A stretch of 25,263 nt of DNA from a virus, in IMG/VR virus record IMGVR_UViG_3300027754_000402, positions 1-25,263 of that record. One strand, written 5' to 3'. Below are positions 14,545-17,137 of the stretch, one piece after another (positions within the stretch are counted from its first letter, which is position 1; the number at the start of each line of letters is the position of its first letter). The position numbers and the translations under genes are program-made. The notes below the pieces were generated by a model. The model made no database searches. It had not been told where the DNA came from and saw only the letters and a list, made by a program, of their open reading frames with translations.

Positions 14545-14802
14545 ATGAACGACAATACAGACAAGCTAAGGCAAAAAGCGGTTGATGATGGGGTTTTTAG
14601 CAAGAGCGTTTACACGCTTTTTTTAGAACAAAACCTGCAACGAATGGTTGATGAAGTCAAGCGGTTGCAGCTGGCGGTAGAAGCGGCTTTTGAGGAGGGT
14701 TTTGATTGCGGATATGAAGGTGCACAATTTATTGATAGCCCATCGCATGTCGAGTCGTGGGAGCAAAGCAAAGCCAAAAAAGACGCGGGGGAACCACAAT
14801 GA
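14545..14802 (+). CDS. Small hypothetical protein, coiled-coil
   Basis: Encodes 85 residues with AAGGTG upstream of the ATG. Residues about 25-55 form a probable coiled coil (FLEQNLQRMVDEVKRLQLAV); the rest (EAAFEEGFDCGYEGAQFIDS) matches a pattern of small phage proteins with an aromatic-Gly-rich helix and acidic end. The stop overlaps the next ATG. Function unknown. Confidence 0.6.
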   Translation: MNDNTDKLRQKAVDDGVFSKSVYTLFLEQNLQRMVDEVKRLQLAVEAAFEEGFDCGYEGAQFIDSPSHVESWEQSKAKKDAGEPQ

Positions 14803-14966
14803 CCAAGCCAGAACTGCTAGAGCTGCTCAAACTCCTATCAGCGCTCGAATCTTGGGCGCACTCGACAGGCAGTAAGTTCCCAGACTTTTTATATGAGCGG
14901 TTGGGGGATGCTTTGGACAAGTTGACTAACGAGGTGTTGAACGGTTTGCCAGTGCCGGCAAAGTGA
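14799..14966 (+). CDS. Small helical hypothetical protein
   Basis: Encodes 55 residues; the ATG at 14799 overlaps the previous stop (ATGA), preceded by GGGGGAA. Leu-rich amphipathic helix at the start (MTKPELLELLKLLSALESWA) and a second helix LGDALDKLTNEVL. It is the last gene of the Cro operon, 9 bases before the terminator. Function unknown. Confidence 0.55.
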   Translation: MTKPELLELLKLLSALESWAHSTGSKFPDFLYERLGDALDKLTNEVLNGLPVPAK

Positions 14967-14975
14967 TCTAGCCAA

Positions 14976-14998
14976 GCCGCCTTCGGGCGGTTTTTTTT
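14976..14998 (+). terminator. Intrinsic terminator of the right early operon
   Basis: CCGCC-TTCG-GGCGG (14977-14990) is a perfect five-pair stem with a UUCG tetraloop, extended by a G before it and followed by eight T (14991-14998). It lies 9 bases after the last stop of the Cro operon. Confidence 0.9.
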
Positions 14999-15002
14999 GC
15001 AT

Positions 15003-15030
15003 AAAAAAAGCCCTCGTTTTAAGGAGGGCT
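15003..15030 (-). terminator. Minus-strand intrinsic terminator
   Basis: On the minus strand AGCCCTC, an 8-base loop, then GAGGGCT is followed by seven T (15009-15003). It is positioned exactly after the stop codon of the small minus-strand frame 15176-15030 and faces the plus-strand terminator, insulating the two units. Confidence 0.85.
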
Positions 15031-15176
15031 CACCGGATCACCCTTGCCGCCACTGGCTGACCCTTTCGGGTGGTGTGATGCCATGCAATTTCTAGCACGT
15101 CCGTAACATCATTGTGCGACGGGGGCGGCGCCAACCACCCCCATCGCGGAGCTAATCGGCACGCAGCCAAATTCAC
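15030..15176 (-). CDS. 48-residue minigene, near-leaderless start
   Basis: An open frame from GTG at 15176 encodes a peptide beginning VNLAACRLAPRWGWLAPPPS and ending VLEIAWHHTTRKGQPVAARV-IR. The C-terminal part has protein-like amphipathic character. It fills the space between a minus-strand promoter (predicted start 15179/15180) and a terminator beginning at its stop codon, which argues for a dedicated monocistronic unit. The GTG would lie only about 4 bases from the RNA 5' end, so translation would be leaderless or nearly so; no ribosome site exists. The alternative is a small RNA: the transcript also has a 10-pair stem (15114-15144 region) and a GNRA-type hairpin ACCC-GAAA-GGGT. No family recognised. 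Confidence 0.4.
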   Translation of the reverse strand: MNLAACRLAPRWGWLAPPPSHNDVTDVLEIAWHHTTRKGQPVAARVIR

Positions 15177-15185
15177 TCGGGGCGC

Positions 15186-15214
15186 AGCATAACACAAAAT
15201 CGGCTTAAAATAAC
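15186..15214 (-). promoter_or_regulatory. Minus-strand extended -10 promoter
   Basis: The minus strand reads TGTTATGCT at 15194-15186: an extended -10 (TGn) with hexamer TATGCT. The -35 at 17 bases (GTTATT, 15214-15209) is weak, as is common with extended -10 promoters. It diverges from the plus-strand promoter at 15237. Confidence 0.5.
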
Positions 15215-15236
15215 CACTACGGTTATGAAAATACTA

Positions 15237-15266
15237 TTGGCAACAACCAATGGCGTTTGCTATACT
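15237..15266 (+). promoter_or_regulatory. Strong sigma70-type promoter
   Basis: TTGGCA (15237-15242), 18-base spacer and TATACT (15261-15266), with TGC before the -10 (extended -10). Predicted start is about 15273. The next convincing start codon is at 15850, so the transcript begins with about 575 bases lacking an obvious gene. No Cro-type operator overlaps it, so it would stay active when the early promoters are repressed. Confidence 0.75.
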
Positions 15267-15272
15267 TCGATT

Positions 15273-15823
15273 GCAGCTAGGGTTATCCCGAAAGCTCTTT
15301 CCCTATCATTTGAGTTGCTGCACTCGATAGGGGCGTTGACCATACAACGTAAAAAAGGCGAGTAAGACAATGATGGGGCATTATTTCGAGGCGTTCTGCC
15401 GACCAAAAAAAATCCATTGTTTCAAATTTGTTCGAGTACCAAAGTTTTGGGGTATATGTCACCCCGTCCCACTGCACGGTTTTATGCGTCTAATCAGCGC
15501 CTAGGGCTGACACGGTTTGAAGTGAATGTGCGGTACCGGCCTAAAACCGGATGAGGAAAAGAGTTTGAGCGGGCAGGATGCCGGATGGCTTGAATGATGG
15601 ACTTGAGGACGGGAAACGGGCAGAGGGCGACCTCGACGGCTCAAGCACCACTGGGCACGTCTAATCTGAGCAGCAAGTGCGATTGGCGCCAGAAGTTCGG
15701 CGCATGTTTGCGGGGCTATACGTTGCCGCATCCAGCTCAGGATAATAAAACTTGAATACAGTGCGCAGTATATAAACACAGTCGGCATCCGGTGCCCTCT
15801 GGGCTTGGTATGGCTTGTTGATT
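15273..15823 (+). ncRNA. Candidate large structured RNA / long 5' leader
   Basis: Between the promoter and the 15850 gene no frame is convincing, but stems are frequent. CCCTATC/GATAGGG (15301-15332) with inner GAGT/ACTC has a loop GCTGC complementary to GCAGC at the RNA 5' end (15273-15277), a possible pseudoknot. Others are CGTTG/CAACG (15334-15349), GGGGT/ACCCC (15449-15465), CTTGAG/CTCAAG (15602-15645) enclosing GAGG-GCGA-CCTC with a GNRA loop, and CTGAGC/GCTCAG (15666-15740) enclosing GCGCC/GGCGC and GCGG/CCGC as a three-way junction. A GCCC/GGGC stem near 15800 followed by T-rich bases may mark the 3' end. Size resembles known giant phage RNAs (ROOL class), but no consensus match could be verified. 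Confidence 0.4.
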
Positions 15824-15849
15824 TAGTCCTGATAACAAATGGTAATTTC

Positions 15850-16104
15850 ATGAAAAAATCATTAAGGGAGAAACGAAAACTACACGAATATATTATAGAG
15901 CAGCGCGTCAATGAGGCATTCGAAAGGCTATGGCAGGTTCACACTGCTTGGTACTACTCAAAAATGTTAAACGGTAACAGGCTGGATTACTGGCCAAGCA
16001 AAAATAAATACAGATACAAAGGAAAAACTGAAATTGGTGATGTATTTGAGTTCATCAAGCAAAATGCTAATCCAATTGGAATTGCCAAAAACATCAACGA
16101 ATAA
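15850..16104 (+). CDS. Basic hypothetical protein
   Basis: Encodes 84 residues from the ATG at 15850; a longer frame from 15805 lacks a ribosome site. AT-rich compared with neighbours, and Lys/Arg/Tyr-rich (MKKSLREKRKLHEYIIEQRV; then WYYSKMLNGN and KYRYKGKTEIGDVFEFIKQ). The helical basic N-terminus suggests nucleic-acid binding, but no domain is recognised. The ribosome site is weak (GGTAA). It is the first gene after the structured leader. Composition suggests recent acquisition. Confidence 0.5.
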   Translation: MKKSLREKRKLHEYIIEQRVNEAFERLWQVHTAWYYSKMLNGNRLDYWPSKNKYRYKGKTEIGDVFEFIKQNANPIGIAKNINE

Positions 16105-16384: not shown

Positions 16385-17137
16385 ATGAATATAATTTTTG
16401 GCAGCGGGGGAAATGATTCGGTTGCCCTAGTCCAGTGGGCAATAGAGAACAAGATCAAAAATTTGCACATAGCCTACAGTAACACAGGCTGGGCAGCTGA
16501 TTTTTGGGCTGGACGGTTGAATGAGTTTCGCAGGTTCATAGAAAAGAACGATGGGATTTACCACGAGATAGCTAGCGAGGGCATGGAAAGTCTTATAAAG
16601 CGTAAGCAGGCTTGGCCGCGTAACGGCATGGCTTTTTGCAGCTACGAATTAAAAATTAAACCGGCAATGGAATGGCTGAAAACTGTGGACCCTGACGCAA
16701 GCGCGACATGTTTGGTTGGTGTGCGGCGCGAAGAAAGCGCCAAGCGCAGCAATTGGCCGGAGTGGGTGGAGGAGTCACCAAACCATGGTGGGCGGTCGCT
16801 TAGGTCGCCACTAGTTAGGCACACCGAAAAAATGCGCAATGAGCTAATCCTGCGGGCTGGCTTTGAGGTGTTGCCGCACAGGTCAATGGAGTGTTACCCG
16901 TGTGTAAATGCTGGAAAATCAGACATTGCGATGCTCGACGCCGGCCGCGTTGATTATATAGAGCTGGTTGAGCTTGGTATGGGCGTAGGCCCTATTAGCG
17001 GGAAGAGAAAAACAATGTTCAGGCCTGCGAGCAAAAAAGGGGCGACAGGAATCCGTGACGTCTGGCAGTGGGCGCAAACGTCTAATTTTATTGCAGGACA
17101 AGCTGATATTTTTTGCGATAGCGGATTTTGCGGTTAA
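16385..17137 (+). CDS. PAPS-reductase-like PP-loop protein
   Basis: Encodes 250 residues. PP-loop SGGNDS (residues 7-12) binds the pyrophosphate of an adenylyl nucleotide. Further family signs are FCSYELKIKP with Cys85, GVRREESAKR (112-121), CYPC (170-173) and a C-terminal CDSGFCG (Cys244, Cys249), enough cysteines for an Fe-S or zinc site. The family includes PAPS reductases and DndC-type sulfur-transfer enzymes; phage members stand alone and have no settled substrate. No dnd genes are present here. AGGGTG precedes the ATG. The gene is flanked by duplicated ends of the upstream gene, a sign of insertion or recombination. Confidence 0.8.
   Translation: MNIIFGSGGNDSVALVQWAIENKIKNLHIAYSNTGWAADFWAGRLNEFRRFIEKNDGIYHEIASEGMESLIKRKQAWPRNGMAFCSYELKIKPAMEWLKTVDPDASATCLVGVRREESAKRSNWPEWVEESPNHGGRSLRSPLVRHTEKMRNELILRAGFEVLPHRSMECYPCVNAGKSDIAMLDAGRVDYIELVELGMGVGPISGKRKTMFRPASKKGATGIRDVWQWAQTSNFIAGQADIFCDSGFCG

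What the first reader, a model, noticed from the sequence alone, without database searches (positions are those of the whole stretch)
15237..15849. Strong promoter followed by ~550 nt of hairpin-rich, gene-free DNA: candidate large structured RNA
A TTGGCA-18-TATACT promoter with extended -10 predicts an RNA starting at 15273, and no convincing start codon appears until 15850. The interval has at least six stems, a three-way-junction domain (15666-15740), a GNRA-capped hairpin (15623-15634), and a 5'-end GCAGC that can pair with a hairpin loop 40 bases away. Length is close to that of ROOL-type giant phage RNAs, though I cannot show homology. Alternatives are a long regulatory leader or debris of an old gene.
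Basis: partly seen in the sequence, partly recalled or inferred. Interest (0 to 1): 0.78.

Follow-up and report, generated by a model that had tools for sequence, protein, structure and literature searches.

The report
Phage RNA leader of swappable cassette
The first ~170 bases of this gene-free stretch are a real folded RNA shared by four related phages, and in two of them it heads an undescribed cassette of structured RNA plus an HNH DNA-cutting enzyme; the other ~400 bases show no sign of being an RNA.

Summary
The finding is partly right. The promoter is real: in a relative whose upstream DNA has diverged, both hexamers and the distance to GCAGC persist, and conservation begins exactly at the predicted start, 15273. 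Conservation (77-86%) stops at ~15440, so about 170 nt, not 550, is a supported RNA. It is non-coding (substitutions equal at the three codon positions). One strand co-varies with two mutually exclusive partners. The remaining ~400 nt (15441-15849) fold no better than shuffled DNA and have no detected relative. It is not ROOL, GOLLD or any Rfam 15 family.

Two of the four relatives show what this RNA can belong to: 5' RNA, then a ~280-nt 3' RNA with very strong covariation, then an HNH endonuclease gene. The 3' RNA occurs in 13 viral loci, 12 upstream of HNH genes and one upstream of a DUF3223 gene, and matches no Rfam family. Modules are exchanged freely. In the window the 3' RNA and HNH were replaced, between ~15440 and ~16072, by unrelated DNA and an ordinary 84-aa phage gene. 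My best reading is that the 5' RNA is a switch-like leader of an exchangeable cassette. Regulation versus partnership with the nuclease is untested.

The parts
15237..15266 (+). sigma-70-type promoter, TTGGCA-18-TATACT with extended -10
   Evidence: conserved in L002/L005 and, as independent hexamers at the same distance from +1, in L003
15273..15440 (+). 5' RNA unit: conserved non-coding structured RNA (predicted transcript start at 15273)
   Evidence: 77-86% identity to L002, L003, L005 starting exactly at GCAGC and ending at ~15440; no codon-position bias
15273..15277 (+). GCAGC, pairs with hairpin loop GCUGC (15317-15321), pseudoknot
   Evidence: 5 of 5 pairs invariant in four phages; invariance neither supports nor refutes it by covariation
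15301..15310 (+). strand 1 (CCCUAUCAUU), pairs with strand 2 or strand 3
   Evidence: own-partner pairing is best of all 24 permutations for both partners; paired changes
15326..15332 (+). strand 2 (GAUAGGG), partner of strand 1 in state 1:2
15334..15349 (+). hairpin CGUUG-ACCAUA-CAACG, invariant in all four phages
15369..15378 (+). strand 3 (AAUGAUGGGG), alternative partner of strand 1, 10 bp; also complementary to strand 4 (15412-15423)
   Evidence: no HMM or covariance-model match to the 3' RNA, no kissing-hairpin signal, fold z +0.76
15850..16104 (+). 84-aa ordinary phage protein; its last ~11 codons lie in the flank shared with L005's HNH gene
   Evidence: relatives in Ochrobactrum phage OH and two Manatee Spring podoviruses; shared flank from 16072

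Best explanation
15273-15440 is a promoter-proximal structured RNA (5' unit) of an exchangeable phage cassette. Transcription starts at 15273. The RNA makes an invariant pseudoknot and hairpin, and has one strand (15301-15310) that pairs either with 15326-15332 or with 15369-15378. I infer that it is a cis-acting, switch-like leader that gates expression of whatever lies downstream: the 3' RNA and HNH endonuclease in relatives L003 and L005, an ordinary 84-aa gene in this window. Shown: conservation, its sharp start at the predicted +1, non-coding nature, paired changes, cassette architecture in relatives, module exchange. Inferred: transcription itself and the gating function. The stretch 15441-15849 is replacement DNA and not part of the conserved RNA.
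For: Conservation begins at the predicted +1 although L003's promoter region has diverged. Strand 1 matches its own strand 2 and own strand 3 best among all partner permutations (1:2 sum -56.3 vs next -52.4; 1:3 sum -66.6 vs next -58.0); paired changes exceed column shuffles for 1:3 (6 cells vs 2.7, 1/500) and more weakly for 1:2 (3 vs 0.8, 12/500), and every slid control. No terminator-like site between 15273 and 15850, so the RNA would be the leader of the next gene. In L003/L005 the same unit precedes a 3' RNA with 62 both-sides-changed cells vs 22.7 shuffled and 10-19 slid, then HNH. Module swaps: window vs L005, L038 vs L039 and L027 vs L028.
Against: Only four phage populations carry the window-type 5' unit, so covariation rests on few independent changes. 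MFE is not below shuffles (z -1.03). No RNA-seq. In more distant cassettes the 5' unit ends in a U-run after a long helix, which looks more like a separately terminated small RNA than a leader; the window type does not match that crossing-helix descriptor (58 of 200 shuffles do as well).
Confidence: 0.45

Rival explanations
1. The 5' unit and the 3' RNA are working parts of a ribonucleoprotein or homing system with the HNH endonuclease (a HEARO/omega-RNA-like arrangement); the window keeps only the orphaned 5' part.
For: 3' RNA found in 13 viral loci, 12 with an HNH gene directly downstream and one (L123) with a DUF3223 gene instead; loop sequences conserved as well as stems; in L005 vs L003 the 3' RNA is at least as conserved at the DNA level as the HNH gene.
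Against: HNH relatives in marine phages (L040-L053) overlap the gene upstream and leave no room for the RNA; no RuvC or other RNA-guide domain called; the HNH model's best solved match is a stand-alone phage HNH, weakly (E 0.009); the window and L002 keep the 5' unit without HNH.
Confidence: 0.22
2. The 5' unit is an independent small trans-acting RNA gene; cassette neighbours are accidental.
For: Own promoter; modular exchange; in nine other loci the analogous unit has a crossing pseudoknot and ends in a U-run (0-1 of 200 shuffles).
Against: Window, L003 and L005 lack a GC-rich terminator hairpin at the unit's end (read); the unit stays upstream of gene cargo in all four phages.
Confidence: 0.22
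3. A long 5' UTR conserved by recent descent, without a function of its own.
For: Only four populations; MFE ordinary; the downstream part is freely replaced.
Against: Conservation sharply bounded at +1 (L003) and ~15440 while flanks diverge to 26-43%; paired changes on one strand with two partners; invariant loop/5'-end pairing.
Confidence: 0.08
4. A ~550-nt giant structured phage RNA (ROOL/GOLLD-like) covering 15273-15849.
For: Length and phage context only.
Against: No Rfam match at gathering or E<=10; no tRNA in the window; 15449-15849 unstructured beyond chance and not conserved.
Confidence: 0.03

Closest known systems
HEARO RNA / OMEGA RNA upstream of IscB/IsrB (HNH-associated RNA and ORF)
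   Same: In relatives, a large covarying RNA directly precedes an HNH endonuclease gene in a mobile-looking cassette
   Different: No Rfam match; proteins are about 155-215 aa with an HNH domain only and no RuvC hit in Pfam; two RNA units; the window itself has no HNH gene
ROOL and GOLLD giant phage RNAs
   Same: Structured non-coding RNA in phage
   Different: No Rfam match, supported length ~170 nt in the window, no tRNA island in the window
Group I introns with HNH homing endonucleases
   Same: Structured RNA plus HNH gene, apparent mobility
   Different: No Rfam Intron_gpI match, intergenic, own promoter
Phage leader RNAs with alternative pairings (attenuators, put-like leaders; from general knowledge)
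   Same: Promoter-proximal, one strand with two exclusive partners
   Different: No terminator hairpin found in the window-type unit; no regulator or function shown

Membership tests
ROOL / GOLLD | match to the Rfam covariance model | tested here: not met
   Searches (window; relatives): no match
ROOL / GOLLD | length ~550 / >800 nt of conserved structure, often near tRNA islands (PMC12286853) | tested here: not met
   conserved part 168 nt; no tRNA in window
HEARO / OMEGA RNA with IscB-like nuclease | match to the Rfam model | tested here: not met
HEARO / OMEGA RNA with IscB-like nuclease | downstream nuclease with RuvC and/or HNH domains of the IscB type | tested here: not met
   relatives: HNH domain only; window: no nuclease downstream
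HEARO / OMEGA RNA with IscB-like nuclease | RNA binds the nuclease and guides cleavage | not testable with these tools
   needs biochemistry
Group I intron | conserved catalytic core (Rfam Intron_gpI) | tested here: not met
   no match
Group I intron | interrupts a gene and is spliced out | tested here: not met
   lies between intact genes with its own promoter; splicing itself not tested
Attenuator-type leader RNA | mutually exclusive helices conserved in evolution | tested here: met
   strand 1 covaries with two partners in four phages; small sample
Attenuator-type leader RNA | one alternative state is an intrinsic terminator or hides a ribosome site | tested here: not met
   no terminator-like site inside 15273-15849; ribosome-site hiding not tested
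3' RNA + HNH cassette described here | 3' RNA (model R1) present | tested here: not met
   window best 1.5 bits with filters off; L003/L005 E ~1e-27

The most novel reading that the evidence does not exclude
The window holds an orphan 5' module of an undescribed phage system in which a variable, exchangeable 5' RNA and a conserved ~280-nt kissing-hairpin RNA act together with an HNH endonuclease as an RNA-dependent homing or inter-phage interference system, evolved independently of IscB/OMEGA.
Probability: 0.15. Interest if true: 0.87.

Novelty: new variant of a known kind. Interest (0 to 1): 0.58.

Why it matters
The window led to a phage RNA family that Rfam 15 does not hold: a ~280-nt RNA with very strong covariation directly upstream of HNH endonuclease genes, preceded by an exchangeable 5' RNA. 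An HNH gene with a large upstream RNA turned out once before (HEARO) to be an RNA-guided nuclease, so whether this one is regulation, a mobility device or a partnership is directly testable. For the window itself, the result narrows a vague '550-nt RNA' to a defined ~170-nt element with a testable two-state fold.

Tried and rejected
Rfam at gathering and at permissive E-values on window and relatives: nothing relevant. Blastn of the region against known phages: one 32-nt hit at E 0.004. Coding explanations: codon scores and codon-position counts give no support to the frames overlapping the conserved part, nor to the 136-aa minus-strand ORF. Window 15441-15849 as a diverged 3' RNA: no nhmmer hit, no CM hit with filters off, no kissing-hairpin signal above shuffles. 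Window 5' unit as the U-run pseudoknot type seen elsewhere: not above shuffles. VIPR guide RNAs (PMC13142463): a RAMP-type protein, no HNH in the text, and a GGY/NN repeat code that I did not see here (not tested formally). Pattern scan for more 3' RNAs: 28 viral hits, only one new true member (L123), plus two chance genome hits. R1 in 369 genomes of the class of a Nitrosomonas MAG: one weak hit, within ordinary cellular genes. The kissing-hairpin descriptor was hand-made from the first examples, so its hits in L022/L023 are suggestive only.

Full report
WHAT WAS CLAIMED AND WHAT IS THERE. The window is a 25-kb virus record. Between the terminator at 14974-14993 and the gene at 15850 there is no convincing gene. 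The promoter at 15237-15266 is present as described. The claim of unusual structure fails on its own terms: the MFE of 15273-15849 is no lower than shuffles (z +0.66), and likewise for 15449-15849 (z +0.76); the first part alone is only slightly low (z -1.03). Rfam 15 gives nothing at gathering thresholds and nothing relevant at E up to 10.

COMPARATIVE EVIDENCE FOR THE 5' UNIT. Relatives found through the neighbouring helicase gene share part of the region. Aligning the window with L005, L003 and L002 shows conservation that in L003 starts at GCAGC, the predicted +1 at 15273, and in all three ends at ~15440: identity 0.845 (L005), 0.861 (L003) and 0.768 (L002) before, 0.40, 0.43 and 0.26 after. 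In L003 the DNA upstream has diverged, yet TTGCAA-16-TATAAT lies at the same 6-nt distance from GCAGC (read). L002 and L005 also share the promoter itself. A profile of the unit finds only these four populations among all loci fetched; IMGVR 3300009155_000363 is the window's own population (100% over 13.9-17.4 kb).

It is not a coding region. Variable sites fall 7, 5 and 6 on codon positions 1, 2 and 3 of the frame at 15225-15362, and are equally flat in the other frames tested; codon scores are low, with two short frames just reaching the bottom of the gene range (0.10-0.11 vs genes 0.10-0.28).

STRUCTURE OF THE 5' UNIT. The pairing of 5' GCAGC with the loop GCUGC and the hairpin CGUUG/CAACG are invariant. 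Strand 1 (15301-15310) pairs with strand 2 (15326-15332), with two pairs changed on both sides in four sequences (3 cells, 12 of 500 shuffles). It pairs also with strand 3 (15369-15378): 5 pairs and 6 cells changed on both sides (1 of 500 shuffles). In both cases the sum of own-partner energies is the best of all 24 partner permutations (cross energies). The two pairings exclude each other. In the window state 1:2 is 5 kcal/mol more stable than 1:3 by constrained folding (-43.5 vs -38.6). Four sequences is a small sample, so I treat the two-state model as supported, not proven.

THE CASSETTE IN RELATIVES. In L003 and L005 the 5' unit is followed by a second RNA and then an HNH endonuclease. 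Searching with the HNH proteins and reading upstream DNA gave a ~280-nt RNA family. Its first half (model R1, 117 positions) has 83% of cells paired versus 55% in shuffles and 33-47% in slid controls, and 62 cells changed on both sides versus 22.7 and 10-19. R1 matches 13 loci at E from 2e-29 to 8e-12, including L033, which was not used to build it, with one copy in each of the 12 records searched whole. Twelve of the 13 loci have an HNH gene downstream; the exception, L123, has a DUF3223 gene, which I do not count as HNH because Pfam did not call an HNH domain. No Rfam family matches any of these. Further downstream, two hairpins have complementary loops whose sequences change together (e.g. 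UACAAG/CUUGUA in L005, UGCAAG/CUUGCA in L003, read); a descriptor finds this kissing pair at corresponding places in most members and in Vibrio phage 2.095.A and Xanthomonas phage Kintu at 0-2 of 40 shuffles, a post-hoc test. Several isolated phages with related HNH genes have 460-640 nt gene-free gaps upstream of them, while marine relatives have none.

MODULES ARE EXCHANGED. L038 and L039 share 3' RNA and HNH at 96-100% but differ in the 5' unit (56-64%), and L039's 5' unit equals L036's; L027 and L028 show the same pattern. In nine such loci the 5' unit, though unlike in sequence, has a helix crossing a long helix that ends at a U-run (0-1 of 200 shuffles); the window type does not pass that test, so I do not file it with them.

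WHAT HAPPENED IN THE WINDOW. R1 does not match (best 1.5 bits with filters off), nor does the sequence profile. Similarity to L005 stops at 15448 and resumes at 16072, inside the 3' end of both the HNH gene of L005 and the unrelated 84-aa gene of the window. That gene belongs to an ordinary phage family present without any such RNA in Ochrobactrum phage OH. The simplest account is replacement of the 3' RNA and HNH by other DNA between these points; the direction of the change is inferred.

MECHANISM. I think a cis-acting leader with two states is most likely for the window: transcription starts at 15273, no terminator-like site lies before 15850, and the next gene would be expressed from this transcript. 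The gating itself is inference. A trans-acting small RNA and an RNA-nuclease partnership in the full cassette remain open. The HNH model is moderate (pLDDT 68.6) and shows a small helical N-terminal domain and an HNH core whose best solved match is a stand-alone phage HNH at a weak E of 0.009, which gives no support for an RNA-guided enzyme and does not exclude it.

LIMITS. The interest score reflects the cassette family reached from this window more than the window's own 170-nt RNA.

Noticed in passing
L033-L039, L054, L057, L094, L123, L003, L005: ~280-nt covarying RNA upstream of phage HNH endonuclease genes (once a DUF3223 gene), absent from Rfam 15
   Followed up: yes
L027 vs L028; L038 vs L039: 5' RNA unit swapped while the 3' RNA and HNH stay nearly identical
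   Followed up: yes
L022, L027, L028, L033, L036, L038, L074, L085, L094: 5' units of unrelated sequence share a crossing-helix (pseudoknot) layout ending in a U-run
   Followed up: partly
window 15100-15228: Separate conserved segment just upstream of the promoter, 92% in L002; part of it (15107-15195) sits elsewhere in L003, next to a tRNA
   Followed up: partly
window 14974-15031: Back-to-back terminator-like sites on the two strands after gene 14757-14966
   Followed up: no
L057 1750-1950: A tRNA (Rfam) and, by eye, a second tRNA-like sequence inside a long stem just upstream of the 3' RNA
   Followed up: no
L040-L053: Marine phage HNH relatives whose gene overlaps the gene upstream, so no RNA
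   Followed up: partly
window 16385-17137: PAPS-reductase-domain protein in the phage's rightward gene block
   Followed up: no
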